This document shows positions 8,719-28,595 of a DNA stretch of 64,000 nt, piece by piece (the first letter of the stretch is position 1; the number at the start of each line of letters is the position of its first letter). A model generated the notes under the pieces. That model made no database searches, had not been told where the DNA came from, and was given only the letters and a program-made list of their open reading frames with translations. A program made the position numbers and the translations under genes. Source of the DNA: Deltaproteobacteria bacterium (GTDB taxonomy: Bacteria > Desulfobacterota > GWC2-55-46); contig JACRCL010000010.1 of assembly GCA_016219015.1 (NCBI GenBank), positions 1 to 64,000 on the forward strand, given 5' to 3'.

Positions 8719-8725
8719 AGCTCCC

Positions 8726-9127: not shown

Positions 9128-9134
9128 AACCGTC

Positions 9135-9362
9135 CTATTTTATCGCGAGGTGGTTTATTATGTAGACGTACGCGTCCTTAATTATCCAGAGGAAGATCGC
9201 GCCGCATACCCAGAGGAACGCCCTCACCGCGCTCCGCTTCGTCTTAAGGAGGTCCTTTACCGCCTGCTGCTCGGAGGGCGTAAGCTGGCACTCGCCCTGC
9301 TGCTCCCTTATCTCGTCCGCTATAAGCCTGGCGAGCTCTTTCGGCTCCATATCCTGCGTCAT
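9135..9362 (-). CDS. Small phage membrane protein
   Basis: The 75-residue protein has a charged helical N-terminus (MEPKELARLIADEIREQQGE) and one hydrophobic segment (about 48-66, AFLWVCGAIFLWIIKDAYVY). The start overlaps the previous stop as ATGA (9359-9362). The place next to the holin suggests a second holin, antiholin or spanin-like accessory. No family was recognised with certainty. Confidence 0.65.
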   Translation of the reverse strand: MTQDMEPKELARLIADEIREQQGECQLTPSEQQAVKDLLKTKRSAVRAFLWVCGAIFLWIIKDAYVYIINHLAIK

Positions 9363-9703
9363 GCCTTCCTTACCAGCCGCCTGAGCTTCATGCCCTGAGG
9401 GAGGAAGCCGCCGGAGGGTATCTCGCTCGACGCGTCAACGCCGAACGTCCTCGTTATATACGCGGCCCTGTCGACGTTTACTATGACGGGCCGGCCCGTC
9501 GCCGGGTCTATCTCCGCCTTTACGCCGCTTGCGGCCTCGATCTCCATCGCGGTCAGCGTGTCTATGTTCACCCGGCACTGGGCCAGGCCCGGGGCAATTG
9601 ATGAACAGCTTATGATGGGAGAAGAGCCGTCAATTGGCAGCGTGTCCGCGCAGTAGCACGCCGTGATCTTTCCGTCCGAGTCGTGAAGTACCTCTATGAA
9701 CAT
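9359..9703 (-). CDS. Phage structural protein of unknown function
   Basis: The 114-residue protein has no signal or membrane segment. It begins MFIEVLHDSDGKITACYCAD and includes IDPATGRPVIVNVDRAAYI. It lies directly after the short tail-fibre-like gene and overlaps the next gene by four bases. I do not recognise it; the position suggests a tail appendage or chaperone. Confidence 0.6.
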   Translation of the reverse strand: MFIEVLHDSDGKITACYCADTLPIDGSSPIISCSSIAPGLAQCRVNIDTLTAMEIEAASGVKAEIDPATGRPVIVNVDRAAYITRTFGVDASSEIPSGGFLPQGMKLRRLVRKA

Positions 9704-9713
9704 TTAAGACCTC

Positions 9714-10172
9714 CTAATTTATGTGGTAGTCCCAGTAGACCGTTACGTCCGTGTTCGACCCCTGCCCCATTATGAGCGCGACCTCCCTGAACGTCCCGGG
9801 GGCCGACTGGTCGTTCATCCTGCACTCGACCCTTGCGGTGGCCGAGCCGGCGGTGTTTATCGTCATGTGCGGCGCGTGGCTGTACCGGGCTATGGGGATA
9901 TAGACCGTATTGCTCGATCCGTTCATGTTGAAGCTCCCCTGCGCGAGCTTGAGCTTCGCGATAGACACCACCGAATCCGCCAGGACGACGCTCTTGCTGT
10001 TCAGCCCGTCGTGGTCGTGGTCCACGGCCGGCGTGAACGAGCTCCCGACCCACTCCTTGAGGAGCGCGAGGTTCTGCCGTATGCCTTCCATGAGCGTGAC
10101 GTCTATGGGGCTGTCCGCGTCTGTCTGGCTTGAAGATATTTCATTCCAGGAATATGCCGGCGCTGCCATCAA
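9714..10172 (-). CDS. Short tail-fibre-like protein
   Basis: The 152-residue protein starts MMAAPAYSWNEISSSQTDAD. It contains the segment TPAVDHDHDGLNSKSVVLAD, a pattern seen near the head of phage tail-fibre shafts, then a beta-rich C-terminal part. It follows the tail-tip protein. A receptor-binding or fibre-cap role is likely; the specific family is uncertain. Confidence 0.6.
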   Translation of the reverse strand: MMAAPAYSWNEISSSQTDADSPIDVTLMEGIRQNLALLKEWVGSSFTPAVDHDHDGLNSKSVVLADSVVSIAKLKLAQGSFNMNGSSNTVYIPIARYSHAPHMTINTAGSATARVECRMNDQSAPGTFREVALIMGQGSNTDVTVYWDYHIN

Positions 10173-10207
10173 AAGCCTCCTTTGTCTATAGCCTTACGTA
10201 AGGTCAT

Positions 10208-11929
10208 CTACCAGATGTAATACCCGTCCGCCTGCCCTGCGTCTATCATGTTGCCCGTGTCCCCGATGAAACCGTACCGCCTCTGCACGGCCGAAGACTG
10301 CTGGTAATCCGGAGAGCCCGCAGGCGGGATAAAACCGTAAAGCCTGTTCATCCGGGTCTCTATCGCCTCGCAGCTCACCCTGTTGGTATTGAAATCCGGC
10401 CTCACTGAAGTGAGCATCACGCGCTCCTTCACCCACTCCCGCCTGCCGAAGCCCGCCGCCTCCCCCGTGGTTATGTCCTTTATGTCGGCTGGCCTTATGA
10501 AGCGCGAGCCGAAGGCGGCGTTATTCAGGTCTATGTCGAACGAGACCGTGGCTACAGGGTCCCTGTAGCGGTTCAATATCTTCTGGGCGAGAGACGCCGC
10601 GAGCTTATCACCGTCAAGGGCCGATATGGCGACCTGCTCCGTCCGGTTTGACTGCGGCAGGTCCTGCAGCGTCACCAGCACCCTTATGTACCTTGTAGTG
10701 TCGGCATCGAAAAGCTGGTACTTGCCGTCCCTGGAGAGCTTGACCGCGCCTCCGGCAGAGCCGCCGGGAGCGGCCCAGACCAGGGTGTTCGAGCTTTTTG
10801 AATACGCGAGGGTCCCTGTCCCGGTCCCGTTGGCCCGCGAGGCATGGTACAAAATGACCCCGCTGATGGCAGGCTGGGCATAGGTCCGCGTCCTTATCCA
10901 TTTGCTTTTTATGACCTTGGTGCTTATCTCGTCCCAGTTGGATGCGTCCTGGGACAGGGCGTCAGCGGCTATATGGGCTGATTCGAAGTTCTCCTCCTTG
11001 TCGGAGCCGGATTCGTCATAATCATAATAGACGACTATGCGGTTGTAGAGATTATCCTTGTACCCGCTCTTTATGCTCAACGAGTCCTGGAGGATATCGT
11101 CGCCGTCGTTCCATTCCTCGACTTCCTCTGAGGGCATCGGGGGGGAGAAGACCTTGTAGTTTATCTTTTCTCCGTCATGGACGATGAAGGAGTTCGTCTC
11201 TATCTGGAGCTCGTTCAGGTACTCGTTCGCCTCGCGGGGCTCGGTCAGCACCCTGTCGAAGGTCCAGCCCTGCAGCCACCTGTCCCTTTCAGAGGCGAAA
11301 CCCGATGAATCCACGTACCCGGCCCCGACCGACAGTTGAGTCAGGAGCATGTCAGTCATTATATCGACCGGGTTCGAGTTCCTGTAATCGATATACTGTG
11401 TCTTTGTCCCGTTCTCCACCGGCAGCCTGGACGAGGCGCTCTTCAGGTCATCAGCCACCGTTATCGTCAGCTCATCTCCCTTCCTCGTCCAGTCGAGGAC
11501 CTTGCCGGTGAAGGTCGTAGCGTAATCGGAATAGGTGAAACCTTTCGAGACAAAGCCGTCCTTGCGCAGCACCCTCCGGTTCTTGAGGTGCTCGCCGCTG
11601 ATAAGCGCTTCGAAATTCTCCCTCCCGCATATCGAGAACGTGAGCTGGCCTCTTGTCGAATACCCGCTTTTCGGGTCGAGCTTGTTCTGAAGGGATGAGA
11701 TTGCCTTAAGGGCCGGCGTTACACCCGGCAGCCCGTCGGAGCCCCACGCGAAAAGGGTCCCGTCCGCGCGATAAGACCCGTCAGCGAGAAAGCGCGTGAC
11801 GGACGGGCAGCCCGGGTGGAAGCCGTACCTCGATGTAGCGCCGTCGAGTTCCATCTCTATTACTACGTTGGGCGTATTGACGCCCTTCTGCAATTCACGC
11901 TTGAACCTGTCTGTAAGTATGATCGCCAT
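10208..11929 (-). CDS. Phage tail tip / hub-like structural protein
   Basis: The 573-residue protein starts MAIILTDRFKRELQKGVNTP, a style of opening common in siphophage tail-tip proteins. The middle has segments such as TFTGKVLDWTRKGDELTITV and EYLNELQIETNSFIVHDGEK, like baseplate-hub domains that carry an OB-type insert. The C-terminal part (SCEAIETRMNRLYGFIPP) lies next to the fibre-like gene. The hub call rests on size, context and these patterns, not on a strict motif. Confidence 0.65.
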   Translation of the reverse strand: MAIILTDRFKRELQKGVNTPNVVIEMELDGATSRYGFHPGCPSVTRFLADGSYRADGTLFAWGSDGLPGVTPALKAISSLQNKLDPKSGYSTRGQLTFSICGRENFEALISGEHLKNRRVLRKDGFVSKGFTYSDYATTFTGKVLDWTRKGDELTITVADDLKSASSRLPVENGTKTQYIDYRNSNPVDIMTDMLLTQLSVGAGYVDSSGFASERDRWLQGWTFDRVLTEPREANEYLNELQIETNSFIVHDGEKINYKVFSPPMPSEEVEEWNDGDDILQDSLSIKSGYKDNLYNRIVVYYDYDESGSDKEENFESAHIAADALSQDASNWDEISTKVIKSKWIRTRTYAQPAISGVILYHASRANGTGTGTLAYSKSSNTLVWAAPGGSAGGAVKLSRDGKYQLFDADTTRYIRVLVTLQDLPQSNRTEQVAISALDGDKLAASLAQKILNRYRDPVATVSFDIDLNNAAFGSRFIRPADIKDITTGEAAGFGRREWVKERVMLTSVRPDFNTNRVSCEAIETRMNRLYGFIPPAGSPDYQQSSAVQRRYGFIGDTGNMIDAGQADGYYIW

Positions 11930-11996
11930 GGTGGTTTAAAAAAACACCTCTCTGGTCTTAGGATTATTTAAGCGTAGCGGGAGGCCGCATTACCCG

Positions 11997-14303
11997 TTAC
12001 TCGTACTCTATCTCCACCAGGCAATCCCCTGCCCCGGTCTTTCCCCCTGCCGTATATCCAAAGATAACGTCGCCCTTCCGTATATCCATAGAGGTCAGGG
12101 TCATTTCGGTAACATCGCCCACGGCCTTGCTTATTTCAGAGGTGACGGAGGTAAAGTAGCTGTTCGTATTCGCCGCATTCCTTCTTATGCCTACGGATAC
12201 CGTTACGCCCGCGTCCGCGCTCGTTGCTACCGTATAGATGAGCCTTGCCGCTCTCATGGTATAGTTGGCGTTGGCTTTCATAAGGGTAACAGTTTGCGCC
12301 GCTCCTGAAAGAGTAAGGGAGGCGTTGGAGATTGTCCTTTTCCTGTTCTGCATGGAGAAGTCCATCTCACCCGTGACGGGTATCATGTAGAAGTCCGCTA
12401 CCCTGAATTTCTCGCCGGATACGAGATTGCTCGCTGAAAGCGACAGGATATTGTCGCTCGTCTTATGTGCCCTGAAGAGAGCCGAGAATGGAATAAAAGT
12501 AGAGGCCCCAATCGTCTGAGCGTTAGCCCACTGAGCGTTTGAAGGTATGGCCCTCAATATCCTCTGATACTGCGATTCGCCCCATCTCACTTCAAAGGCC
12601 CCGCTTGCGGAATCGGTCTGTATATACCCGCCCACAAGATAGACCTGCCCTGCCTCGACGGATACGCCCGTCTGCCTTATCCGGGCCGAGGCCGCCGTTG
12701 CCGTAAGCTCCCAAGCCTGATTCACCCTGTAGGTCGTGGTGTCCTTCGCCCCCGTAGCCCCTGCCGTTATCTCCCACCCCGAAGGCACGCCGCCCGTGTA
12801 TGTCCCCCCGAAGCTCCCGTTGGTAAGGAGGCTCTTTACCATGTCGGCCCTGAATATTATAGAGCCATAAGAGGTGTCGGTATCGTCGGTCGAGATACGG
12901 TATTTGACCGCAGTCTCGCCCGCCGGGATGGTCGTTACGAACCTGTAGTCCTGCGGCAGGTTAGGCACATTCGGGTCTATCAAAGGCATTACGGCAGGAC
13001 TTCCAGCTATGAAGGAATTATCCGACCCCTTATAAACCCCAAAGGTCGTAGATGTTCCATTGCTCTTGAGGTTTGTGACTACCGCCCTTGTAAGGTAATC
13101 CTCCCCGGCCACCACATCCGGCACATCGCAAGAGACATAGCCCACGCCGGAGGTCGATATGAGCCTCATCGCCCCTGTCCCGTAGACCGCCTCGTGCGTG
13201 TCGTCGGGTATGCTTATCGTGGCGCTGGTGGCAGTCCAGCCCGTTGATATGTTCGTGGCGAAGTCGGGGTTACGGGGCACGCAGCTACGCCAGAGGTTAT
13301 CCCCCGCCGAGTAGTCCACATCGTAAGAGCCGAATTCCCTTAACTGAGGCGAGGTCGCTCCGGCGACCCTCGTAGAATGGTAATTCCTCCGAGAAGTCCT
13401 TATGCCGTTGTCTATAACGTCGCACCCGTAGCCGTCGAAGCCGTCGATAACCGTCCTGTAGGCCGAGCCGTCAATGTGGATGTTCGAGTAATAGGCGTAA
13501 GCGTCCCTTATGGCTGTCCCCCTGCATTTGCCTATCCACGCGCCCACGCTGTTCGTCTCGAAGTGCGGGTGTTCAAGCGTCACGCTCTTCGTATGGCTGT
13601 CCCCGCTCGCGTAGATATCCCCTATGAGCATACCTGTCTTGTTCTGCTCGATAGTGGGGTGGACGAAGCGCAGGTCCTGCCCCGTGACAACGGCCCCGGT
13701 CTTTGAATACTGGAGGATAAGCCCGTCAAAGAGGCCGTTATTCGCCTCCTGTGAAGTCCCTTTCCTTATATCAAGGGCTATGTCGAAGCCCGTGAAAAAG
13801 ACGTTCCTCATCTGCCAGCGGTTAAGGCCCCATGCCTTCAGGCCGTTTACCTTCTGATACCTCCCGTCGCTTGATAAGACCTGAAAGAGGATGTTCTCGA
13901 TATAGACCCTTGAAAGGTCGACGGTGTCTACCAGATAATCCCCGTCCACCATCGAGGAGTGCGCCCTGATGATGGTTATGCCGTTGCCGGAGCCGTCTCC
14001 GATCAACCTCATGTCGCTATAGAGGACGAGGCTCTGGCTCAACATATACACGCCGGAGGGCATGTGGACGGTTTTATTCGGTGAGGAAGCATTTGCGGCG
14101 TCTATAGCGGCCTGCAACCCGGCGTAGTTATCGGTAGCTCCGTCCACCGTAAGGCCGTAGGCTGAACTTTGGGCATTGACGGCGCCCTTATGCGTCCCGT
14201 CGTTATTGTGCTCCACGATGGCGAGCCTGTTTAAAGTGTCGCTTAAAATAGGGTGCCCGGCCCCTACCATCTCTTCAATATGCTGTATCCTTAAGTCAGA
14301 CAT
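11997..14303 (-). CDS. Tailspike with pectate-lyase-like beta-helix
   Basis: The 768-residue protein has a short N-terminal anchor (HIEEMVGAGHPILSDTLNRL). The beta-helix begins YGLTVDGATDNYAGLQAAID and VHMPSGVYMLSQSLVLYSDM, the usual start of pectate-lyase-fold tailspikes, and continues to about residue 330. Two beta-rich, carbohydrate-binding-like modules follow (about 340-500 and 500-640), then a C-terminal domain with VSVGIRRNAANTNSYF. It probably binds or cleaves a surface polysaccharide of the host. The catalytic residues cannot be assigned from sequence alone. Confidence 0.78.
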   Translation of the reverse strand: MSDLRIQHIEEMVGAGHPILSDTLNRLAIVEHNNDGTHKGAVNAQSSAYGLTVDGATDNYAGLQAAIDAANASSPNKTVHMPSGVYMLSQSLVLYSDMRLIGDGSGNGITIIRAHSSMVDGDYLVDTVDLSRVYIENILFQVLSSDGRYQKVNGLKAWGLNRWQMRNVFFTGFDIALDIRKGTSQEANNGLFDGLILQYSKTGAVVTGQDLRFVHPTIEQNKTGMLIGDIYASGDSHTKSVTLEHPHFETNSVGAWIGKCRGTAIRDAYAYYSNIHIDGSAYRTVIDGFDGYGCDVIDNGIRTSRRNYHSTRVAGATSPQLREFGSYDVDYSAGDNLWRSCVPRNPDFATNISTGWTATSATISIPDDTHEAVYGTGAMRLISTSGVGYVSCDVPDVVAGEDYLTRAVVTNLKSNGTSTTFGVYKGSDNSFIAGSPAVMPLIDPNVPNLPQDYRFVTTIPAGETAVKYRISTDDTDTSYGSIIFRADMVKSLLTNGSFGGTYTGGVPSGWEITAGATGAKDTTTYRVNQAWELTATAASARIRQTGVSVEAGQVYLVGGYIQTDSASGAFEVRWGESQYQRILRAIPSNAQWANAQTIGASTFIPFSALFRAHKTSDNILSLSASNLVSGEKFRVADFYMIPVTGEMDFSMQNRKRTISNASLTLSGAAQTVTLMKANANYTMRAARLIYTVATSADAGVTVSVGIRRNAANTNSYFTSVTSEISKAVGDVTEMTLTSMDIRKGDVIFGYTAGGKTGAGDCLVEIEYE

Positions 14304-14319
14304 TCAAGCTCCTTTTGGA

Positions 14320-15099
14320 TTAACCTTTCCTTCCCTTGATGTTTATCGTTATATCCCTGTAGAGCCCGCCGTTCTTTAGCGGGTTCCTGAACTTCACGTC
14401 AGGCCTCATGAGGAATACATCCCCCGGGGCGTTCGAGGCTTCCCAGGCGACGAAAAAATTCTTTAACCCGGATACCTCCCACCATTGCCTGACCTTTCCG
14501 TAAAGGGCGCTGTCCGCGTCCTCGAACCTTATTGAAAAAGACCTCTCCGCGTACTTCACATGGACCCCTGACACAAACCCGCCCTGGCTCAAGTTCTCAT
14601 TGCATCTGACCTCCTCGCCGTAGGGGTCAAAGCCCGATGTGGCGTAGTCGAGCTCCGTCTTATTGCCCCAGACGCACACCGCGATATATGGCGCCCCCGT
14701 GTGCCCGTTTATCTTGAGACGCCAGTACCTTCTTGCGCCCGGCGGCGTGAACTCCTTCAAATATACTGAATCGGCTGGCACCGCTTCGGGCGCGAAGGCG
14801 TCGTTTACATCGGCGGAGAAGTTATCCGTCGAATACTGCAACGACACCGAGGCCCCAATCGACCCGAGGTTATGCCCGAATATCGCCACGTAGTCCGCCG
14901 TCCTCTCCATTCCCACGCCGCAATCGACGGTTAAATACTGAGGGCCGGCCGAGTCCGTAGCCGCCCACCTGTTCACTTCGAGCATGTTGTGGATATTTGA
15001 GGCCGGGCATCCGGCCGCCTCGGACGTGGCGGTCAGGACAGAGCCCTCCGCCCCGGGGATAGAATCGTAGTAGAACTTTATCTTATTCCACGTAGCCAT
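14320..15099 (-). CDS. Phage tail protein with discoidin-like region
   Basis: The 259-residue protein starts at ATG 15099 (MATWNKIKFYYDSIPGAEGS) behind an AAAGGCGGG; an upstream TTG at 15129 is less likely. Segments CPASNIHNMLEVNRW, YLTVDCGVGMERTADYVAIF and RRYWRLKINGH resemble the galactose-binding (F5/8-type) fold used by phage tail proteins to hold sugars. The C-terminal part describes a beta-rich structural domain. It lies between tailspike and lipoprotein genes. Confidence 0.62.
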   Translation of the reverse strand: MATWNKIKFYYDSIPGAEGSVLTATSEAAGCPASNIHNMLEVNRWAATDSAGPQYLTVDCGVGMERTADYVAIFGHNLGSIGASVSLQYSTDNFSADVNDAFAPEAVPADSVYLKEFTPPGARRYWRLKINGHTGAPYIAVCVWGNKTELDYATSGFDPYGEEVRCNENLSQGGFVSGVHVKYAERSFSIRFEDADSALYGKVRQWWEVSGLKNFFVAWEASNAPGDVFLMRPDVKFRNPLKNGGLYRDITINIKGRKG

Positions 15100-15162
15100 C
15101 CTGTAACCCGCCTTTCTGATCCTGCTCAAATTCAGATATCCGATATCTGCCTATCTTAGACT

Positions 15163-15190
15163 GTCATTCTGAGCGTAGCGAAGAATCCCG
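15163..15190 (+). repeat. Dispersed GTCATTCTGAG-type repeat
   Basis: GTCATTCTGAGCGTAGCGAA followed by GAATCC is a short dispersed motif; a close relative lies at 62488-62524 (GTCATTCTGAGGAGCCAGAG and ACGAAGAATC). Here it lies in the 3' untranslated gap between the lipoprotein genes and the tail protein. Confidence 0.5.
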
Positions 15191-15204
15191 GAGCTGATGA
15201 ACCA

Positions 15205-15345
15205 TCAAGTTGCGAAGCCGGTAAGACGGACATAGACTTCAAGGTTTACATAAAGCGTAGAGCACTCGATGACCTTCCTTACTTCGACCATCACACCCTC
15301 TTCAAGCTGCTCGCCGCCGCTTCTGCCCAGCCGACCGCTCTTCAT
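15205..15345 (-). CDS. Possible 46-residue protein coupled to a lipoprotein gene
   Basis: An ATG at 15345 overlaps the stop of the upstream lipoprotein gene as ATGA and opens a 46-codon frame: MKSGRLGRSGGEQLEEGVMV, then EVRKVIECSTLYVNLEVYVR. The product is charged and without a signal or membrane segment. The only support is the coupled start and phage-like density; it may be chance. Confidence 0.35.
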   Translation of the reverse strand: MKSGRLGRSGGEQLEEGVMVEVRKVIECSTLYVNLEVYVRLTGFAT

Positions 15346-16052
15346 CTCGCCCGCCGCAGCCTCGACTCTATGTCATCGAGTATTCCCTTTCGATATTCGC
15401 CGGATGGTGCTTCTTCCTGCCAATAGGTGAGGAACCTACCATTACTTTTGCCATAGACCTGTGAGCTTTGCGAATACTCGCTTACGCTAACCCTGACGCC
15501 ATCGTTTGTCCTTACAAGCCTGGCGCTGACTTTTATCCTGAAATTGCTGTCGTCTTTTTTCACTTCAGTGGTAATATAGCCTTCTTCCTTCCTCATATGC
15601 TTTATTACGAACCCCCGCTCATCGAGAGTGTCCACCACGGCATCCCAGACCCTGTCGTAATCGGCATGGAATAAAGCCGTGCCGAGGATTTCGGGTGAAT
15701 CAAGGGAGATTATGTATGCCCAAACGGAAGATTTATCGCTGATATAACCCTCTTTACCTGAAGCGAATCTCACCTTGTATAAAATCTCCGTCTCCATCGC
15801 GCCTTTTATTGTTATAGACCTGCTTATGCACCATATTATCGGCTTGTCGGGGCATTCAAGCGTCTCTATCACAAACGCATCCGGCTTGTCGAGCGTGAAC
15901 GTCAGGCCTTTGAGTGACGGCTCACTGTAAATGGGCACCTTCTCCGGCTCTATTATCATGAACCTTTTGCCTACCATGGGGTTGAACCGCACGGTCCAGC
16001 TGCATGAAGCAAGGAGCAGAATGAGTACCGCCGATAGCGCAATGTTTTTCAT
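15342..16052 (-). CDS. Lipoprotein, paralogue 3 of a tandem triad
   Basis: The 236-residue protein has a type II signal peptide (MKNIALSAVLILLLASC) with lipobox LASC, so it should be lipid-anchored. An extra N-terminal beta-rich region (about 25-115) with KPIIWCISRSITIKG precedes the domain shared with its neighbours: DYDRVWDAVVDTLDERGFVI, MRKEEGYI and a C-terminal SGEYRKGILDDIESRLRR. The fold resembles BamC/NlpB-type lipoprotein repeats, which is inference. The DNA is richer in A/T than flanking tail genes. It lies within the phage late region but has no known virion role. Confidence 0.8.
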   Translation of the reverse strand: MKNIALSAVLILLLASCSWTVRFNPMVGKRFMIIEPEKVPIYSEPSLKGLTFTLDKPDAFVIETLECPDKPIIWCISRSITIKGAMETEILYKVRFASGKEGYISDKSSVWAYIISLDSPEILGTALFHADYDRVWDAVVDTLDERGFVIKHMRKEEGYITTEVKKDDSNFRIKVSARLVRTNDGVRVSVSEYSQSSQVYGKSNGRFLTYWQEEAPSGEYRKGILDDIESRLRRAR

Positions 16053-16133
16053 GAAAATTCCCTTCTTAAAAAGATTTTCCTTTGCCTTTTTTATATTCCT
16101 TAGCAGTCCCTTAAATCTCTTTGCATATTATGC

Positions 16134-16586
16134 TCACTTACTCCGCCGCAGCTTCTTCTCTATATCGTCGAGAATTCTCTGTTGATATAAACCGGATGGC
16201 TCGCCTTCTTTCCAATGTGAGACAACCGCCTTGTTATTTATGAAAGAAAAACCTGCGTATTCCTCATAGTCCTGTACAGTAACTTTTACCTCGCTGTCCA
16301 TTTTTACAAGCCTAACACTAATCCTTTCCCTGTTATATGCGCCTTCTTTTCTGTTTTTAGTATCGATATAGCCCTCTTCCTTTCTCATCTGATTTATCAC
16401 GAACCCCCGTTCATTGAGGGTATTCACCACAGCGTCCCAGACTTTATCGTAATTTTCATTGAAGAGCCTCGGCACGCCCGGAGGCATGTCGTAGCTTTTA
16501 TGAAGAAGACGATAGTAGCATCCGGTGGTGGCCAGCATGAGCAAAAGCATAAAAACCATTTTTAAACTTATAGAGAGCCTTTTCAT
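16134..16586 (-). CDS. Lipoprotein, paralogue 2 of a tandem triad
   Basis: The ATG at 16586 gives 150 residues starting MKRLSISLKMVFMLLLMLAT, with lipobox near TTGC, then the shared domain: NYDKVWDAVVNTLNERGFVI, NQMRKEEGYIDTKN and the end SGLYQQRILDDIEKKLRRSK. It is clearly homologous to the genes on either side. The upstream sequence repeats the box AAAAGACTACC / TTAATATT (16613-16632), also found before paralogue 1. AT content is high. The function is unknown; phage lipoproteins of this size often act in superinfection exclusion. Confidence 0.82.
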   Translation of the reverse strand: MKRLSISLKMVFMLLLMLATTGCYYRLLHKSYDMPPGVPRLFNENYDKVWDAVVNTLNERGFVINQMRKEEGYIDTKNRKEGAYNRERISVRLVKMDSEVKVTVQDYEEYAGFSFINNKAVVSHWKEGEPSGLYQQRILDDIEKKLRRSK

Positions 16587-16612
16587 AGAACCCACCCTAT
16601 CGATATCTGTTC

Positions 16613-16632
16613 AAAAGACTACCCTTAATATT
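16613..16632 (-). promoter_or_regulatory. Shared upstream box, lipoprotein paralogue 2
   Basis: On the plus strand AAAAGACTACC (16613-16623) and TTAATATT (16625-16632) lie 27 bases upstream of the start. The same two blocks lie before paralogue 1 at 17180-17204. On the minus strand GGTAGTCTTTT could hold a -10 (TAGTCT). It is either a conserved promoter or leader duplicated with the gene. Confidence 0.4.
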
Positions 16633-16686
16633 CGATTTTTCGCATCCTTCCCCGGTCTATTGTGCTTGCCTTCCGGTCCTCCGAGG

Positions 16687-17145
16687 CTATCTCTTCCGCC
16701 GCAGCTTCGCCTCTATGTGGTCGAGTATCCACTGCTGGTACTCGCCGGAAGGCACGCCTTGTTTCCAATATGCTATAGATGAGTCACTCTGGTTGTTTTT
16801 TTTAAATTTAAAACGGAGTTCTGCCGTTTCAGGGTGGTCGCTTACGGTGATGCTTACGCCGTGTTCCTCTTTTAAAAGCCTGATGGTGACCCTTTCACGC
16901 TCATAGGCACTCAACTGCTTGTTTTTGGTGTCGACATATCCTTCTTCCTTCCTCATCTGGTTTATCACGAACCCCCGCTCATCAAGGGTGTCTACCACGG
17001 CATCCCATACCCTGTCGTAATCCTCGTTAAAAAACCTCGGTACCCCCGCAGGGACATACTTTTCGTGTTGAACATAACACCCTGCGGATACCATAAAGAG
17101 TAAAAACACAAAAAGCATCTTCAAACTTATGGCAAGCCTTCTCAT
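16687..17145 (-). CDS. Lipoprotein, paralogue 1 of a tandem triad
   Basis: The ATG at 17145 is preceded by GAGGAGG at ideal spacing and gives 152 residues; an ATG at 17160 lacks such a site. The signal peptide MRRLAISLKMLFVFLLFMVS ends in a lipobox SAGC. The shared domain follows: DYDRVWDAVVDTLDERGFVI, NQMRKEEGYVDTKN, SGEYQQWILDHIEAKLRR. It is the first of the three lipoprotein genes in transcription order, just after the tape-measure-like gene, and is AT-rich. It is probably a moron (cargo) gene. Confidence 0.84.
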   Translation of the reverse strand: MRRLAISLKMLFVFLLFMVSAGCYVQHEKYVPAGVPRFFNEDYDRVWDAVVDTLDERGFVINQMRKEEGYVDTKNKQLSAYERERVTIRLLKEEHGVSITVSDHPETAELRFKFKKNNQSDSSIAYWKQGVPSGEYQQWILDHIEAKLRRKR

Positions 17146-17179
17146 ATGTAGCCTCCTCATAAAAATATTCTGAGTTTCT

Positions 17180-17204
17180 AAAAGACTACCATAAGTTTAA
17201 TATT
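17180..17204 (-). promoter_or_regulatory. Shared upstream box, lipoprotein paralogue 1
   Basis: On the plus strand AAAAGACTACC (17180-17190) and TTAATATT (17197-17204) match the box before paralogue 2, with 6 rather than 1 base between blocks. On the minus strand TATGGTAGTCT looks like an extended -10. It would allow expression of the lipoproteins apart from the late phage transcript. Confidence 0.4.
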
Positions 17205-17235
17205 TCATAAAATGTTTTATTATCGCCTCTCTGCC

Positions 17236-18234
17236 TCACGAAGTCTTTACCGTTACCGCCACATTCCTGTCTCCTGCGTCCTTTAAGGCCGGGATTATGT
17301 TATCGTCGACTATCTTCTGCCAGTTCTGCTCGGAAAGCGGGTTATAGACCTGTATGGTGATATGCTGGGTCGTCGTTGCATTCGCCTCTGGCGCTGTTGC
17401 GCCTGATAACGCCTTGGCGCCGCCTCCGCCGGAGCCTGATGAAGAGGTTCCCGTAGGCCCTCCCAGGACCTCCTGCACCCCCGCGGCCGCTATCAAGGCC
17501 GCGCCCGCCACTGCCCCGAACTCTGCCGCGGAAGTAAAATGGAGCATCGCCGTGGGCGACCCCATCGCGAGGTCCCTGAACCCCATGGCCGTTTCGAATA
17601 TCGCCCACACGGCGGCCTTTGCGGCAAGCCCGGTAAGCTCGACTTTTACCTGCTGCGCTATGGCCTTGCCAAATTCCTTTGTAGAGAACCTATGTATCTC
17701 GACGAGCCTTAAAAGCTGGTCCCCCATGGCCTGGTAGGCCTTCTCTTGCAATTCTTTCCGCGACTTTAGGCTTTCATCATGCAGTCTGTCATATCCCTCT
17801 ATTGCTGAGAATTTCTCCGCTGAGAACTCTACATGCTTATCATAAAGCTTTTCCAGGTAATCATAGGTTTCCTGAACCCCCTTGATATAATCTTCTTTTG
17901 CCTTTTCATAACTCTTGTCCGTCTTATTTAAAAACCAGAAAGGCCCGCCAAAGCCCGTTTCACTTTTTGAGCTATCCTTGTTTGTCTGCGCAGATGACAG
18001 CTCATTGAATGCGCCGTTTAGCTCCCCTACAGATGCCGCCAGGTCCTTTGCGGCGTTTTGGAAGGCCCGGTACCCCTCTTCTATTTTTTTTATCCCTGCT
18101 TGAGCCTTTTCCTGCGCGAGGCCCAGGCCCTCGAAGCAGTCCCTGACCTTCCATATCTCTTCCGCGCTCATCCATTCGCCGGAGGCTGGGAGTCCGCTTG
18201 CATTTATCACTATATCCATGTCCCTATTTCCCAT
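17236..18234 (-). CDS. Tail tape-measure-like protein (short)
   Basis: The 332-residue protein comes directly after the frameshifted tail chaperone genes, the fixed place of the tape measure in siphophages. The N-terminal half is helical coiled-coil (KAQAGIKKIEEGYRAFQNAA, EKFSAIEGYDRLHDESLKSR). It then has Ala-rich hydrophobic stretches (EFGAVAGAALIAAAGVQEVL), a Gly/Ser linker near 265 and a C-terminal TTTQHITIQVYNPLSEQNW domain seen at tape-measure ends. At this length a tail would be short, of the order of 50 nm if typical scaling holds. A second start (ATG 18219) is possible. Confidence 0.78.
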   Translation of the reverse strand: MGNRDMDIVINASGLPASGEWMSAEEIWKVRDCFEGLGLAQEKAQAGIKKIEEGYRAFQNAAKDLAASVGELNGAFNELSSAQTNKDSSKSETGFGGPFWFLNKTDKSYEKAKEDYIKGVQETYDYLEKLYDKHVEFSAEKFSAIEGYDRLHDESLKSRKELQEKAYQAMGDQLLRLVEIHRFSTKEFGKAIAQQVKVELTGLAAKAAVWAIFETAMGFRDLAMGSPTAMLHFTSAAEFGAVAGAALIAAAGVQEVLGGPTGTSSSGSGGGGAKALSGATAPEANATTTQHITIQVYNPLSEQNWQKIVDDNIIPALKDAGDRNVAVTVKTS

Positions 18235-18999
18235 TTTCCTTTTCCTTAGCCCTTGCGCTTTCGCGTTTGAATATCTCGTACGCCTCGGCGAGCCAGTAAG
18301 GCTGCATGGCCCATCCGCCGGAGAACAAAAGGTGACCCGTGGAGTCGAGCAGGAAGATGAGCCTTATGACCCCTGCCGTCTCTACCATTATATAGCTTAA
18401 GGGGCATTCATAAAGCCGCAGGTCGCCGAGGCTGAAGACCTTCGCCGCCCCTTTTTCCATGAGCTCCCCTTTTATTTGAGGGGAGTATTCTTCGACCGCC
18501 CTCGCCTCCTCGCTCAGACCAAGCCTGTTCGAGCAGTTGCGTGCGGCCACGTCCTTATCGTTGCAGTTCTCGCAGTCAAAGGGGCTCCCGTCTCTCGTCA
18601 GGAAGCTCAGGCGGAAGCCCGCTGTCAGTTTTTTCTCTGTCCCTCGGTAAGCCTTGAGTGCGATTCCATCGCCTTTATTATCTCTACGACAAGGTCCGTG
18701 TCCGCGGTCTCGTAGAACTCGGCCGGGTCCGTCACCTCCCGCTCCCCCACGTAATAACCCGAGACGGATTCGACGTTCTCGACGAATTGATTTTTCTGCA
18801 CATGCTGCGAGACCTCGGTCACCTTTTGCGGGTCTGATAGGCCCTTTGCCCTCGCGGCTATCAGGCGCGAGTAGTGCTGCACCCTTGAGTACGGCACGAA
18901 CTTGAGCCTCACCACGCACGGGTCGATGCTCTCCCTGTTGCCCCCGTACTCCGGTATGTAGTCTACGACCGCGTCCCTGTCAAAAGATATGATGGCCAT
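18224..18999 (-). CDS. Tail assembly chaperone, long frameshift product (GT-like)
   Basis: The upstream frame (18999-18625) and the -1 frame (to 18224) join at the slippery AAAAAAC to give about 258 residues: ...RLTEGQRKKLTAGFRLSFLT and on to RESARAKEKENGK. The -1 frame has no convincing start of its own, yet its sequence (CENCNDKDVAARNCSNRLGL, FLLDSTGHLLFSGGWAMQPY) is protein-like up to the tape-measure gene. This matches lambda gpG/gpGT logic, in which a small fraction of extended protein helps tail assembly. A CxxC at its middle could bind metal. Confidence 0.82.
18625..18999 (-). CDS. Tail assembly chaperone, short product (G-like)
   Basis: The 124-residue protein starts MAIISFDRDAVVDYIPEYGG behind a strong AAGGAGG and ends at TGA immediately after the slippery heptamer. 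Charged helical segments such as DPCVVRLKFVPYSRVQHYS and FYETADTDLVVEIIKAMES are present. It lies between tail tube and tape measure, the place of G-type chaperones that coat the tape measure before tube polymerisation. Confidence 0.85.
   Translation of the reverse strand: MAIISFDRDAVVDYIPEYGGNRESIDPCVVRLKFVPYSRVQHYSRLIAARAKGLSDPQKVTEVSQHVQKNQFVENVESVSGYYVGEREVTDPAEFYETADTDLVVEIIKAMESHSRLTEGQRKN
18628..18634 (-). promoter_or_regulatory. -1 programmed frameshift slippery site A-AAA-AAC
   Basis: In the zero frame the codons read AGA AAA AAC TGA, so A-AAA-AAC has exactly the X-XXY-YYZ register, and the stop follows at once. Slipping -1 gives AAA AAA CTG ACA and opens the long second frame. The place in a tail chaperone gene is conserved in tailed phages. 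Confidence 0.85.
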
Positions 19000-19020
19000 T
19001 GCTATCCTCCTTAAAAGGTT

Positions 19021-19199
19021 ATCCGTTATCAGTTATCTGTTATCAGTTTATGGATGGGTCTTTTTACATTCACCGATAACCAATCACCGATAACTTATAA
19101 CCGTCTCTATACGTCATCAGTTCTCTGTTATCGGTTTATTGATTGGTCTTTCTACATTCACCGATAACCAATCACCGATAACTGATAACCGTCTCTACA
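19021..19199. repeat. GTTATC-rich tandem repeat array 1
   Basis: The array has many copies of GTTATC(A/C/T)GTTATC and CACCGATAACC. A unit of about 90 bases, with TCTTT(T/C)TACATTCACCGATA and CCAATCACCGATAACT, occurs twice in tandem. A related array lies at 25792-25915. The array fills the gap between tail-tube and chaperone genes and overlaps the tail-tube stop. There is no coding content. Confidence 0.75.
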
Positions 19200-20286
19200 C
19201 CGTTGCCGCCGTATTCTTGAGCAGTATCCCCGCGAGGTATCCGGTAGTCTCCCCGTCAAAGAGCCCCTCGTATTTAAGGGTTATCATCGGGTCCTTTTCG
19301 AGCTTGTACTCAGGCCCCCCGCCCATCCTCTGCATCACCGGGAGGTCGATATAAAGCCCGTGGTTCTCCCCGCTGCCGGCCTGCGTGCCGGTGTCCCAGT
19401 GGAGGAAGAAGCTCTTTGTGCCGCCTGCGGAGATCCAGCCGTTGAGCTCGGAAACCGATGAAAACCCACTCGCCGGGTCCTCCCAGTCTATGGTTATCTC
19501 CATCGTGGCCTTGAACTGACCCATGCGGGTCTTGTCCGGATAGTCGAGGCCTGAAAGCCGGAGCACGTCCTCCATCCCGTTGTCGATCTTCAAGGAGACC
19601 TTGTCCGGCTTTATGAGCGTCGCGGACCCGAACGAGAAGTCCGTATAGCCGGGCCCTGTCCCCACCCTCGTTATTGCGCCGGTGTATAGCTTCAGGTTAT
19701 TGTAGTCGCACCTCAAGCTCTCCTGGGCAAAGACAGGGTTGCCCAGCTCGGCCGTTACAGCGTCCCTTTTCTGCCCGAAGAGGTCCGCCTTGATCTTCAG
19801 AGGGCTGCCGGCCTCCTGGTCGAACGAGAGGCTTTTGACCCTCCCGCCCACGAAGGGCCAGTTCCTCATTACGGCCCCCTCGTTTATGTTGAGGTTGAGC
19901 GTAAGGCCCCTGTCACCGAGGTTCGACGCGGAAAAGGGGTTTGCCGCGGGGTAGACCATGTGCCTGTACTGCCCCGTCGTCCCGTTCTGCGATGATACGG
20001 CCGTCCCGAAGAAATGTTTCAAAAGGGTGCCGGCGAGGCCCTTTGCGGACCCGGATTCAGTAAAGAAAGGCATCTCTATCGAGGCGCTCCACCTCTGCCC
20101 CATGCGCATGAATGAAGATTGCCCCTTTACGCTCTCCTCGCCCCTGAACTCGGCCCTCTTCTTCTCATCGAATTCCATCTTGGGTATCGACGGGGCCAGC
20201 AAGGGCATGTAGCCGACTGTCGAGGCCTCTTTTACGCCCCTCGAAGCCTCCTCGCCAAGGGCGAGATATATCCTGTTCTCAGCCAT
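19195..20286 (-). CDS. Major tail tube protein
   Basis: The 363-residue protein (MAENRIYLALGEEASRGVKE) is beta-rich, with KAEF-type segments, GDRGLTLNLNINEGAVMRNW, VKSLSFDQEAGSPLKIKADL and MITLKYEGLFDGETTGY. This is the pattern of siphophage tail-tube proteins with an immunoglobulin-like addition. The place between the connector genes and the G/GT chaperones supports the call. It would form the tube that carries DNA into the host. Confidence 0.75.
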   Translation of the reverse strand: MAENRIYLALGEEASRGVKEASTVGYMPLLAPSIPKMEFDEKKRAEFRGEESVKGQSSFMRMGQRWSASIEMPFFTESGSAKGLAGTLLKHFFGTAVSSQNGTTGQYRHMVYPAANPFSASNLGDRGLTLNLNINEGAVMRNWPFVGGRVKSLSFDQEAGSPLKIKADLFGQKRDAVTAELGNPVFAQESLRCDYNNLKLYTGAITRVGTGPGYTDFSFGSATLIKPDKVSLKIDNGMEDVLRLSGLDYPDKTRMGQFKATMEITIDWEDPASGFSSVSELNGWISAGGTKSFFLHWDTGTQAGSGENHGLYIDLPVMQRMGGGPEYKLEKDPMITLKYEGLFDGETTGYLAGILLKNTAATV

Positions 20287-20335
20287 CTATTTATACCTCC
20301 TCGTGCGTCTGTAATGGTAAACGGGGTGTCCGGGC

Positions 20336-20767
20336 TTAAGCCTCCCTGTACCTGACCGAGACCTTGCAGGACAGGGAAAAGATATTATCCTTGTGGCTCT
20401 CGGCCAGGGCCCCGGCTATTGTTACCCTGCTTACCGGCTTCGCTGCCGCGAGCGGACCCGCGTTCAGCGCGTTTACGGTAAGCGCCTCCCGAATTTCGTG
20501 CGCCCACCTCTGCTGCTCGCGGACAGCCTTTTCGGTATCCTTTTCAAGCATCAGCACCTTTATGTCGAACTCCGCCTCCGAGTAGGACGGCCTCTCCCCG
20601 TGCGAGCCGGCAAAGGCCTCGCCTGCGTATGATATCTGTCCTGACGGCATCTGGCTTGCCGGTATCTCCTTCGCTTCATTGAAAGACCTGTGCGAGAACC
20701 GGACCCCCCTGGCCCTCAGGACGCCGCGCATATTATCGGTTATCGCCGAGACGATATCGAAGCTCAT
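20336..20767 (-). CDS. Tail terminator / tail completion-like protein
   Basis: The 143-residue protein starts MSFDIVSAITDNMRGVLRAR, overlaps the previous stop as ATGA and ends SLSCKVSVRYREA. Size and order (after the connector, before the tail tube) match tail-completion or terminator proteins that cap the tube at the head end. No decisive motif is present. Confidence 0.65.
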   Translation of the reverse strand: MSFDIVSAITDNMRGVLRARGVRFSHRSFNEAKEIPASQMPSGQISYAGEAFAGSHGERPSYSEAEFDIKVLMLEKDTEKAVREQQRWAHEIREALTVNALNAGPLAAAKPVSRVTIAGALAESHKDNIFSLSCKVSVRYREA

Positions 20768-21651
20768 CGCCTGCCCATCCTGAGGGTCGCCGTCCCCGCG
20801 CCTTCCTCGCCCCCGGAGACACTCCCGTCCTCCGAGGAATCGTACTTGAAGTTCATGTCCTTGAACGCCTCTTCGGCCTTCTTCTCGTACTCCTTCCACA
20901 TCTCCCACCAGAAGCCGCCGCTTTCCCTGGCCAGCCCCTTGCATGCCTCGGCCACCGAGAAGCAGATGTGGACCTCCCTCAGGTCATACGGGTCGAGCAC
21001 CAGCTCAGGCCTTCTCCCGAGCCTCATGAGCCGCTCCTCGATCTTCTCAAAGGCCCTCTGTATCTCCTTTGAGAACGACCGGGTAAGGATATACCTTTCC
21101 CCCGGGATAATGGCCGATGAAAAGCTCTCGGAGGTAATGGTCCCGGTCGATGACGAGAAGTCCGCGACCTCCCGTGCCTCGTCCCTGTCCATTGAGTAGA
21201 GCAGCCCTCCGGTGAAGTAATCGTCCTCGTACCTTTTAAGCTCCGAATCGACGAGCGTCGTCTCGGAGCCGCCCTCGGCCTCACCCCTCACGCTCCAGCC
21301 GCTGTCTTTCAGCTGCGGCAGCTCGCCGAAGATGTCCTCGTCCGTTATCACCTTCGAGAGCCTGGAGTTGACAACATCATAGAAAAGGGTCGCGTAACAG
21401 GTCTTACCGTTGTAGGAGTAGGATACGACCGCCCTGTAATTGACGGCGGCGGCTGAATTCTCCTCCTGTGTAAGGCTGTACGAAAGCAGCCCGTCGGAGC
21501 CTGCCGTCATTGGAGCGGCGTCGATAAGTTTCGAATCACCCCCCGGCCTGTAAACGGTGAGCGTTGCCGGGCCGGCCGCTATCTTTCTGTTGTTCTCGTA
21601 GATATATGTCTGGAACGTATCTACGGTATCCTTTATAAACTGCTGTTTCAT
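20764..21651 (-). CDS. Head-tail connector / adaptor-like protein
   Basis: The 295-residue protein begins with an immunoglobulin-like beta-rich part (FQTYIYENNRKIAAGPATLT, VVSYSYNGKTCYATLFYDVV). A helical second half follows (SRSFSKEIQRAFEKIEERLM, REVHICFSVAEACKGLARES), of the kind found in gp6-like adaptors. A Gly/Ser/Glu-rich tail ends the protein. It lies between the gp10-like gene and the tail terminator. The assignment rests on order and pattern. Confidence 0.55.
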   Translation of the reverse strand: MKQQFIKDTVDTFQTYIYENNRKIAAGPATLTVYRPGGDSKLIDAAPMTAGSDGLLSYSLTQEENSAAAVNYRAVVSYSYNGKTCYATLFYDVVNSRLSKVITDEDIFGELPQLKDSGWSVRGEAEGGSETTLVDSELKRYEDDYFTGGLLYSMDRDEAREVADFSSSTGTITSESFSSAIIPGERYILTRSFSKEIQRAFEKIEERLMRLGRRPELVLDPYDLREVHICFSVAEACKGLARESGGFWWEMWKEYEKKAEEAFKDMNFKYDSSEDGSVSGGEEGAGTATLRMGRR

Positions 21652-21691
21652 GCCGCCTCCGTTTATATCGGCCCTTGCGGGCCGTGGTCAT

Positions 21692-21800
21692 TGAATCTCC
21701 CCGCAGCTTTTCTTCGGGGGATCTTGACACAGAATATTTCGATTTCGATCCGCTCCTAAACCCCGCTGAAGCGGGGGAATGCGCTCGCTATGCGTGTTCA
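21692..21800 (-). repeat. Dispersed intergenic repeat, copy 2
   Basis: The reverse complement carries TGAACACGCATAGCGAGCG at one end and CGAAGAAAAGCTGCGGGGAG at the other, matching 1417-1496. It also has its own CCCCGCTTCAGCGGGG hairpin. One copy outside and one inside the prophage-like block suggests mobility or long residence of the block in this chromosome. Confidence 0.6.
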
Positions 21801-21803
21801 GGC

Positions 21804-22223
21804 TCACCTTGCAAGCTTGCCTTCTCCCACGGTCCGGACCGTTGTCGCCCTTGCCGCCCGGCTGCTCTCCATGCCGTCATGCCTTATCTTTCCGCCCGCC
21901 TTCAGCCTCTCGTCTTCCCTGCCTGCTTTCGCTATAGCCTTACCTAAGGCCTCTTTAGCCGCCCCATCCGCCCTTACGCCTATGGACGGGAGCCTGTTCT
22001 CATTCACGTTCTTTAAGATCAGAGGGAGTGAGCGCCCTATCGAACGTCGCGGCATGGAGCCGCTTATAACTCCCGTGCCAGCCCGCATGACCGATTTCCC
22101 TTTGACCCATTCTGCCAGGAGCTTCTGTGCAGATCCGCCGGGGGATATTGCCTCAACCCACCCGTAGAAGGCTATCGCCTTGTCCCCGTCGCCCCAGCCC
22201 CACTTATAGCCGCTCAAGCTCAT
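21804..22223 (-). CDS. Phage head-tail joining-like protein
   Basis: The 139-residue basic protein (MSLSGYKWGWGDGDKAIAFY) has SVMRAGTGVISGSMPRRSIG and ends ATTVRTVGEGKLAR. Size, charge and place resemble gp10-type head-tail joining proteins. Its start overlaps the stop of the esterase gene by four bases. It is not recognised by a strict motif. Confidence 0.5.
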   Translation of the reverse strand: MSLSGYKWGWGDGDKAIAFYGWVEAISPGGSAQKLLAEWVKGKSVMRAGTGVISGSMPRRSIGRSLPLILKNVNENRLPSIGVRADGAAKEALGKAIAKAGREDERLKAGGKIRHDGMESSRAARATTVRTVGEGKLAR

Positions 22224-23914
22224 AGGGCCTTAGTCCGCACCTTTGTCGCCGGGTCCCAGGTCCACGTCTTCAGGACCGTCGTATTGTCGTCATCGAGGAG
22301 TTCTATCTTCTCAGTGCCACCCGGAAGCGCCGTAAACCGCAGGCCGTTGAAGATATGCTTCTTAAGGAGCTGCAGCGCGGTGTTATCCGGCGCGGTGTAG
22401 GCTGAGGTGGCGAGACGGGTAAGCACCAGGCTGTAGAGCCTCTGCAAGTCCACCGTCCCCAGCTCGACATTAAGACTCCTATCCTGCGCTATGGTCTTTA
22501 CCCACTCGACCGGGAACTGCCTCGTCTGCCCCACGGCTATAAGGCCGGGCCATTCGAGGTTCATCGACCCGTCCCGATAGATTGTCTTGAGGAAGTCCAG
22601 GACAGCCGTGCGGGTTTTGAATACCCCGACGGTGAAGTCTGCCGGGAACGTGGCCGTCCTGCCCACGGCGGATGGCGCGAACCCTTGCGGGAAAAGTCTC
22701 TCGTCGCTCGCCCCATAGGCGCTCCTTGCTATATTCATCCCGTTATAAGACCGAAGCTGCGCGCCGAGAGTAAGGGCAAAAATCTCGCTCCCGGTGGGAT
22801 TTAAATGGACGCCGTCCGTTTCCGCGTAGGACGAGTTGATGGCGTTTTCATTTGAGGAACTCTTAAGGGCGTCGTTCAGGTCAACGTACTTCGCCCCTAT
22901 CTCCTGCGCCCTCGAATACAGCCACCGGCTTAACGACCGCCTTTCCGAGTTCTGCGCGGCGCTGAACGTGGAGCGGGGGATGATGTTGCCAATGAGGATA
23001 TTCGCGCCTGTTATCCCCGCGTTTTGCAGTTTTGTGATGATGGAATTGATGTTCGTCTGTATCGTTGTAAGAACGGTGCTATCGTAAATATCGTTCGTGC
23101 CGATACCTAAAAAGACCTTCTGCGCCCCGTGGTCTATCACGTTGGACTGTATGACGGAGTCCACGTCGCCCGACCTCGCGCTCCCGAAGCCCCTGTTCGC
23201 CACCCATACCGAGGAGCCGAGCATCTGGCTTAACTGATAGCTCGGAGAAGACGTCTCGTCCTCTTTCGCCGCCAGTCTGTACCCGGAGCCGGGGTTCGTA
23301 GACCAGTAGAATTTGCCGTCGGTGATCGAGTCGCCTATGACGAATATGTCCGGGGCGTAAATCTTTACCTCGTCGATGTAGACGATGCCGGTGGTGGCAA
23401 CCCCCGTCTTGAACCTGAGCTTTGCTATCGCCGTGCCGGAGTAAGACTTCGAGGTTCCCACCTGGGTAAGAGAATCCCCCGGATAGCTCGCGCTCCCGGT
23501 GATGTAGCACTTGACGGTGTGGGCCGCGTTATCGACGACGAGTATGACCTGCTTGTAGACCCCGGCGCTAAAAGAGGCTGTCGAGGCAGCGTCCGTATCG
23601 GTCGAGAAGGACAGGGTGCTGGCCGTGGAGCCGAGGTCAACGGTGACAATGGCGTTATTGGCAGAGTCGAGCAGCTCCAGAATCCCCACGGAGCTTGCGG
23701 CGTGGTTTATGTCGTATTCGAGTATCCACTTGCCCGAAGGCTCGGTGAAGGTCCTCAGGGCCGAGACTATCCCGGAGCCGCTCGTATCATCGAGCTTGAG
23801 CTTCGTGGAGTAGTCCTGCGTGACGATGGAGACCGCCCCGCCGGTGGTATCGAGCGTCCACGAGCTTAAATCGCCGTTGAATCTTTCGAGCAGGATGAGG
23901 TTATTGTTTGCCAT
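22220..23914 (-). CDS. Virion-associated SGNH/GDSL esterase
   Basis: The 564-residue protein has an N-terminal beta-sandwich (about 1-190, lectin-like) and then an SGNH hydrolase domain. Its blocks are VIGDSITDG (Ser, block I), NRGFGSARSGD (Gly, block II), GIGTNDI (Asn, block III) and DGVHLN (Asp/His, block V). A C-terminal region of about 150 residues describes small beta domains. Such enzymes deacetylate surface polysaccharides in phage tails. The gene lies among connector and lectin-like genes. Confidence 0.85.
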   Translation of the reverse strand: MANNNLILLERFNGDLSSWTLDTTGGAVSIVTQDYSTKLKLDDTSGSGIVSALRTFTEPSGKWILEYDINHAASSVGILELLDSANNAIVTVDLGSTASTLSFSTDTDAASTASFSAGVYKQVILVVDNAAHTVKCYITGSASYPGDSLTQVGTSKSYSGTAIAKLRFKTGVATTGIVYIDEVKIYAPDIFVIGDSITDGKFYWSTNPGSGYRLAAKEDETSSPSYQLSQMLGSSVWVANRGFGSARSGDVDSVIQSNVIDHGAQKVFLGIGTNDIYDSTVLTTIQTNINSIITKLQNAGITGANILIGNIIPRSTFSAAQNSERRSLSRWLYSRAQEIGAKYVDLNDALKSSSNENAINSSYAETDGVHLNPTGSEIFALTLGAQLRSYNGMNIARSAYGASDERLFPQGFAPSAVGRTATFPADFTVGVFKTRTAVLDFLKTIYRDGSMNLEWPGLIAVGQTRQFPVEWVKTIAQDRSLNVELGTVDLQRLYSLVLTRLATSAYTAPDNTALQLLKKHIFNGLRFTALPGGTEKIELLDDDNTTVLKTWTWDPATKVRTKAL

Positions 23915-23915
23915 A

Positions 23916-24833: not shown

Positions 24834-24842
24834 ATTTTTCCT

Positions 24843-25769: not shown

Positions 25770-25791
25770 CTTTAAAACCCCTCATTCAGTT

Positions 25792-25915: not shown

Positions 25916-25916
25916 T

Positions 25917-27647: not shown

Positions 27648-27658
27648 ATTTTTAAGGT

Positions 27659-27685: not shown

Positions 27686-27695
27686 AGGCGTACTT

Positions 27696-28559: not shown

Positions 28560-28595
28560 CTAATGCCTCCTTTTTTTGCGAAAAAATATCCTCTT

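What the first reader, a model, noticed from the sequence alone, without database searches (positions are those of the whole stretch)
15342..17145. Three tandem paralogous lipoprotein genes inside the tail module
Each has a lipobox signal peptide and a domain with (D/N)YD(R/K)VWDAVV(D/N)TL(D/N)ERGFVI, KEEGYI and a C-terminal (I)L.(D/H)IE.(K/R)LRR. The DNA is visibly richer in A/T than the tail genes around it. Phage-encoded lipoproteins are known as superinfection-exclusion factors (for example the T5 Llp type), but this domain, tripled and placed between tape measure and tail tip, is not one I recognise. The largest copy also gained an N-terminal beta region.
Basis: partly seen in the sequence, partly recalled or inferred. 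Interest (0 to 1): 0.75.

Follow-up and report, generated by a model that had tools for sequence, protein, structure and literature searches.

The report
Lipoprotein cassette in inherited phage-like element
Three neighbouring copies of a BamC-like outer-membrane lipoprotein gene form an add-on cassette, with its own predicted promoter, inside a phage-derived element that a whole order of bacteria has inherited like an ordinary chromosomal gene cluster; the cassette probably guards the cell envelope against incoming particles.

Summary
Three tandem paralogous lipoprotein genes (59/45% identical to copy A) lie on the minus strand between a short tape-measure-like gene and a distal-tail-like gene. 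They are A/T-rich (GC 43-49% against 54-63% for nearby core genes). The shared domain has the BamC helix-grip fold; the best Foldseek and PDB-profile hits are BamC. In relatives the slot is either empty, with the tail genes adjacent, or holds 1-4 lipoproteins. These are of the same family, an SH3-like N-domain with another C-domain, or one unrelated lipoprotein. A promoter-like extended -10 motif precedes 11 of 13 lipoprotein genes and 0 of 278 core-gene starts. This is a moron cassette under purifying selection (dN/dS 0.14-0.33). The surrounding 'prophage' is not an ordinary one: its capsid gene is single-copy in 32/48 genomes of the order, at 73-93% identity. The element sits at a fixed lpxC-ychF site in one family, its gene distances track lpxC (r up to 0.95), and no integrase or replication gene was seen. 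It looks like a gene-transfer-agent-type, vertically inherited element. It is not a T5 Llp, Ltp or BamC family member by the tests run here.

The parts
16687..17160 (-). lipoprotein A (157 aa; likely start 17145): lipobox, single BamC-like helix-grip domain
   Evidence: (pLDDT 85)
16134..16595 (-). lipoprotein B (153 aa; likely start 16586), paralogue of A (59% identity)
15342..16052 (-). lipoprotein C (236 aa): lipobox, SH3-like N-domain (weak), BamC-like C-domain
17146..17235 (-). A/T-rich gap (GC 0.30) with promoter-like extended -10 motif TTATGGTAGTCT, conserved in relatives; a degenerate copy precedes gene B (16587-16686)
17236..18234 (-). short tape-measure-like protein (332 aa), upstream boundary of the slot
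   Evidence: assigned by position, length and conserved C-terminus, no family hit
14320..15129 (-). distal-tail-like protein with F5/8C-like domain, downstream boundary of the slot
8293..33386 (-). whole vertically inherited phage-like (GTA-like) element: GTA_holin_3TM, tail, capsid, scaffold, portal, terminases, sigma70-region-4-like gene; between lpxC and ychF

Best explanation
The three genes are a moron cassette of outer-membrane lipoproteins carried by a vertically inherited, GTA-like phage element. Shown by computation: paralogy, lipoboxes, BamC-like fold, insertion at a junction that is closed in many relatives, copy-number turnover, distinct base composition, purifying selection, and a conserved promoter-like motif in front of the cassette. 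Inferred: the cassette is transcribed from its own promoter while the rest of the element is silent; the proteins are exported, lipidated and sorted to the periplasmic face of the outer membrane (residue +2 is not Asp). From there they would block adsorption or DNA entry by particles of the same or related kind, by binding an outer-membrane receptor from inside (as T5 Llp does) or the incoming tail.
For: The slot is closed in many relatives (L043, L046, L047, L048, L050, L052, L059, L062, L064, L066, L069) and filled in window, G001, G011, G018, G028, G033, G034, G003, G019 and an IMG/VR contig with the same short-short-long triad (L057). Extended -10 motif in 11 of 13 lipoprotein upstream gaps against 0 of 278 core-gene upstream windows; G033 and G019 were not among the sequences from which the motif was read, and G019 carries an unrelated lipoprotein. 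GC and dN/dS. G018 has four copies of two alternating types; close relatives G011 and G028 each keep one, of different types. BamC fold. A family member in G009 lies directly behind an S24-type repressor gene in a Mu-like region, where prophage-expressed genes sit. Precedents: Llp binds FhuA from the periplasm (PMC9586334); Ltp lipoprotein blocks DNA injection, and its target is the tape measure protein (PMC3952083 and a reference in it).
Against: No exclusion phenotype, expression or localisation was tested. The motif pattern was chosen after looking at most of the sequences, and a general sigma-70 scan found no excess of promoters here. Chromosomal lipoproteins of the same superfamily exist near relA/spoT-like or bioD-like genes, so the fold alone does not imply phage exclusion. 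If the element is a GTA, the benefit of exclusion is less obvious than for a phage. No terminator was found behind gene C.
Confidence: 0.5

Rival explanations
1. Host-benefit (conversion) lipoproteins not concerned with phages: envelope maintenance or Bam-like helper functions, carried by the element and kept for the host.
For: BamC fold; some slot lipoproteins pair the same N-domain with a weakly BamE-like C-domain; chromosomal lipoproteins of the superfamily exist; vertical inheritance aligns element and host interests.
Against: Patchy presence, tandem duplication and loss, replacement by an unrelated lipoprotein, and confinement to the tape-measure neighbourhood are not typical of a housekeeping role; BamE evidence is below threshold.
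Confidence: 0.27
2. Release or lysis accessory: lipoproteins with an SH3-like part that help breach or detach the envelope at particle release.
For: SH3-like N-domain hint (SH3_3 E=0.22 in one member); a stand-alone SH3 protein is proposed as an auxiliary lysis protein in Drexlerviridae (PMC13164509); no spanin gene was recognised by eye near the holin.
Against: Most elements keep the holin end without these lipoproteins; the cassette is far from the holin and has its own predicted promoter.
Confidence: 0.12
3. Structural or assembly part of the tail, as the position between tape measure and distal tail might suggest.
For: Constant position inside the tail module.
Against: Signal peptides and lipoboxes; absent in many otherwise intact elements; different base composition.
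Confidence: 0.04
4. Relics of a decaying prophage without function.
For: Some elements are damaged: a frameshifted N-domain gene in G044, an internal deletion in G035.
Against: Purifying selection on lipoproteins and strong selection on the core (MCP dN/dS 0.04), no stops in MCP in 32 genomes.
Confidence: 0.07

Closest known systems
BamC / NlpB (PF06804), E. coli Bam-complex lipoprotein
   Same: lipoprotein, helix-grip domain; best fold match to the N-terminal domain of BamC (2yh6, probability 1.00, TMt about 0.63); profile match to PDB BamC 9pxg, E=1.2e-4
   Different: one helix-grip domain instead of two, below Pfam's gathering score, phage-borne, tandem
T5 Llp / T1 and phi80 Cor superinfection-exclusion lipoproteins
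   Same: phage-encoded, outer-membrane-type lipoprotein next to tail genes (Llp lies beside pb5; PMC9586334)
   Different: those are small; these are 150-236 aa with a BamC-like fold; no shared sequence shown
Ltp of phage TP-J34
   Same: lipoprotein moron; its target is the tape measure protein (PMC3952083)
   Different: Gram-positive cytoplasmic-membrane lipoprotein encoded in the lysogeny module; no sequence relation shown
Gene transfer agents (RcGTA, BaGTA, Brachyspira GTA)
   Same: vertical inheritance at a fixed locus, intact conserved structural genes, short tape measure, holin of the GTA_holin_3TM family
   Different: different, unrecognised lineage; small terminase keeps an HTH-like region; no particle or packaging data

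Membership tests
BamC (PF06804) | score above Pfam gathering cut-off (25 bits) | tested here: not met
   22.5, 16.7, 17.3 bits
BamC (PF06804) | helix-grip fold | tested here: met
BamC (PF06804) | two tandem helix-grip domains | tested here: not met
   one per protein
T5 Llp / Cor | small lipoprotein with an intramolecular disulphide | tested here: not met
   157/153/236 aa; A and B contain only one cysteine, the lipobox Cys (sequences)
T5 Llp / Cor | blocks an outer-membrane phage receptor | not testable with these tools
   needs expression and plaque or adsorption tests
Moron | extra gene(s) between two genes that are adjacent in relatives | tested here: met
Moron | distinct base composition | tested here: met
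Moron | own promoter | tested here: met
   predicted motif in 11/13 against 0/278; not shown by transcription
Moron | own terminator | tested here: not met
   none behind gene C in a simple scan
Moron | expressed while the element is silent | not testable with these tools
   no transcriptome
Gene transfer agent | vertical inheritance, fixed locus, single copy | tested here: met
   distance correlation with lpxC r=0.81-0.95 for MCP, portal, tube, hub, chaperone, Dit, TMP and p295
Gene transfer agent | structural genes under purifying selection | tested here: met
Gene transfer agent | no integrase or replication genes | tested here: met
   no such protein recognised between lpxC and ychF; larger ORFs read and part searched, small ORFs not all searched
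Gene transfer agent | small terminase without DNA-binding domain | tested here: not met
   N-terminal HTH-like region: HTH_23 E=0.081, terminase small subunit PHROG 3.3e-10
Gene transfer agent | packages random host DNA | not testable with these tools
   needs particles

The most novel reading that the evidence does not exclude
The element is a working gene transfer agent of an unrecognised lineage, and the lipoprotein cassette, expressed by non-producing cells, decides which cells may receive its particles: a turnover-prone, lineage-specific uptake or self-recognition switch built from Bam-like lipoprotein domains.
Probability: 0.12. Interest if true: 0.88.

Novelty: new variant of a known kind. 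Interest (0 to 1): 0.62.

Why it matters
Phage-borne exclusion lipoproteins are known, but a tandem, fast-turning family with a BamC-like fold in a fixed slot beside the tape measure gene was not found in the literature held here. The order-wide, vertically inherited host element would, if it makes particles, be a further independent gene-transfer-agent lineage outside Alphaproteobacteria. A review notes that such elements cannot currently be found definitively by homology or synteny and need experimental validation (PMC11841831). The closed and filled slots of close relatives make the lipoproteins' role directly testable.

Tried and rejected
A close viral relative was sought and not found: no tblastn match for A in 50,697 phage records and none in IMG/VR with the three-row alignment; the L057 triad came in through its capsid gene. 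Pfam, PHROGs and NCBIfam gave only sub-threshold BamC hits. A chance or recent-import reading was rejected by dN/dS and by low GC in every long-resident copy except G003, whose whole element is A/T-rich. Tail-component and decay readings were rejected as above. The N-domain could not be assigned: PDB profile no hit, SH3_3 E=0.22 in one member, low pLDDT. The C-domain of G003/G034 as BamE stayed sub-threshold (BamE E=0.029; PDB BamE E=0.23). The lipobox scan missed G036's tandem pair (LPSC), seen only by reading.

Full report
Observation. The three reading frames exist as described: A 16687-17160, B 16134-16595, C 15342-16052, all minus strand. B is 59% and C 45% identical to A. All three have a basic start, a hydrophobic stretch and a lipobox cysteine. 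A standard lipobox pattern, recalled from memory, matches 19 of 22 lipoproteins of this family or slot and 0 of 481 other proteins of the same loci. The residue after the cysteine is Tyr, Tyr and Ser, so by the E. coli +2 rule they should go to the outer membrane (established knowledge). GC is 0.47, 0.43 and 0.49 against 0.54-0.63 for the core phage genes sampled, including the tape-measure and distal-tail genes on either side.

Domain. Pfam and NCBIfam give only weak BamC/NlpB matches, below the cut-offs. A profile of 14 relatives finds one significant PDB sequence, BamC (9pxg, E=1.2e-4), through both of its repeated domains. AlphaFold2 gives a confident model of A (mean pLDDT 85) and a confident C-terminal half of C. 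Foldseek puts the N-terminal domain of E. coli BamC first for both. In the viral structure library the nearest named hit is a phage 'Lipoprotein', weakly (E=7e-3). So each protein carries one BamC-like helix-grip domain. The extra N-terminal part of C is conserved in relatives, but its fold is only suspected to be SH3-like.

Surroundings. In the window's own genome the family occurs only here. Relatives of the three-gene profile lie in other genomes of the same order, and a capsid search added viral contigs. Gene maps of about 30 loci show the same order everywhere: terminases, portal, scaffold, capsid, tube, chaperone-like, tape measure, [slot], distal tail, spike, hub, holin, lpxC. In many elements the slot is closed. 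In others it holds lipoproteins: three in the window, one in G001, four in G018, one each in G028 and G011, two in G033, at least two with a different C-domain in G034, one SH3-like plus other C-domain in G003, one unrelated lipoprotein in G019, and a short-short-long triad like the window's in IMG/VR contig L057. In G044 and G043 an N-domain gene, broken in both, lies on the other side of the tape measure gene; in G044 an intact BamC-domain gene follows. G036 has a tandem pair of further lipoproteins there too. One member, in G009, sits directly behind an S24-type repressor gene in a Mu-like region.

Own promoter. Reading the gaps between tape measure stop and lipoprotein start showed a common A/T-rich motif ending in an extended -10 box (W-T-R-T-G-N-T-A-N-N-N-T). 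It is present in 11 of 13 lipoprotein upstream gaps and in 0 of 278 100-base stretches upstream of core genes. Composition-preserving shuffles give it in 0-8% of cases per gap, and the joint chance of 11 or more is about 3e-16. That number is too small to be taken at face value, because the pattern was written after seeing most of the sequences and several genomes are close relatives. Two gaps not yet seen when the motif was noted, G033 and G019, also match. A general sigma-70 scan of the window found no excess of promoters, so this is a comparative prediction.

Selection and turnover. dN/dS is 0.14-0.33 for lipoprotein pairs and about 0.04-0.13 for most core genes. G018's copies 1 and 3 are one type, 2 and 4 another. 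G011 keeps one of type 2 (86%) and its close relative G028 one of type 3 (81%), so copies have been duplicated and differently lost. Together these features meet the usual description of a moron, except that no terminator was found.

The element. The capsid protein is found once in 32 of 48 genomes of the order (two fragments in G004), at 73-93% identity and without stops, and in none of the 15 other genomes of the class. In 15 genomes it lies on the same contig as lpxC, 10-20 kb away. In 11 genomes of the window's family, ychF flanks the other side. G029 has lpxC and ychF side by side without the element, and G035 holds a remnant. Distances of element proteins follow lpxC distances: r=0.89 for capsid, 0.95 for portal, 0.81-0.91 for tube, hub, chaperone, distal tail, tape measure and p295; only 0.54 for the spike. 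No integrase or replication gene was recognised between lpxC and ychF; the holin belongs to GTA_holin_3TM, and a sigma-70 region-4-like protein lies near ychF. This is what a gene-transfer-agent-like element looks like. One GTA feature named in a review, a small terminase without a DNA-binding domain (PMC11841831), is not met. Particle production is unknown, so 'GTA-like' is as far as the evidence goes.

Function. Lipoprotein exclusion has two well-studied precedents. T5 Llp binds FhuA from the periplasmic side and folds its outer loops so the phage cannot bind (PMC9586334). Ltp of TP-J34 blocks DNA injection, and its target is the tape measure protein (PMC3952083 and its reference list). The present cassette is phage-borne, probably expressed independently, faces the periplasm or cell surface, turns over fast, and lies beside tape measure and tail-tip genes. 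Exclusion of like particles is therefore the best guess, at about even odds. A general envelope benefit to the host is the main rival. The phrase 'Llp type' should not be used: size, fold and cysteine content differ.

Limits. Some slots were read across contig ends. Gene names such as tape measure and distal tail rest on order, size and weak similarity.

Noticed in passing
window 8293-33386: The whole phage-like element is order-wide, vertically inherited and GTA-like: single-copy capsid in 32/48 genomes, fixed lpxC-ychF site in one family, empty site in G029 (L081), remnant in G035 (L082).
   Followed up: yes
window 33105-33386: Small sigma-70 region-4-like protein at the ychF end of the element, with relatives in G009, G031 and G032 elements: a candidate regulator of particle genes.
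   Followed up: no
window 11997-14303: The spike-like protein is hypervariable (31% identity over the aligned part between two genomes of one genus, where hub is 77%) behind a conserved N-terminus, as expected for receptor binding.
   Followed up: partly
L024 8336-8908: A family member directly downstream of an S24-type repressor gene in a Mu-like transposase region of G009.
   Followed up: partly
L067 980-4755: G036 carries a secreted 428-aa protein, an M23-like peptidase and two tandem lipoproteins (216, 225 aa) upstream of the tape measure gene.
   Followed up: partly
window 15164-15189: A TCATTCTGAGCGTAGCGAAGAATC repeat-like sequence in the gap behind lipoprotein C; single copy in this window.
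   Followed up: partly
L057 12736-12906: A stray 56-aa tape-measure C-terminal fragment between the second and third lipoprotein genes, suggesting the cassette grew by duplication that carried tape-measure ends with it.
   Followed up: no
window 23916-25769: Two tandem LamG-like proteins and an SGNH-hydrolase-like protein (22220-23914) in the element's variable region between capsid and tail genes.
   Followed up: no
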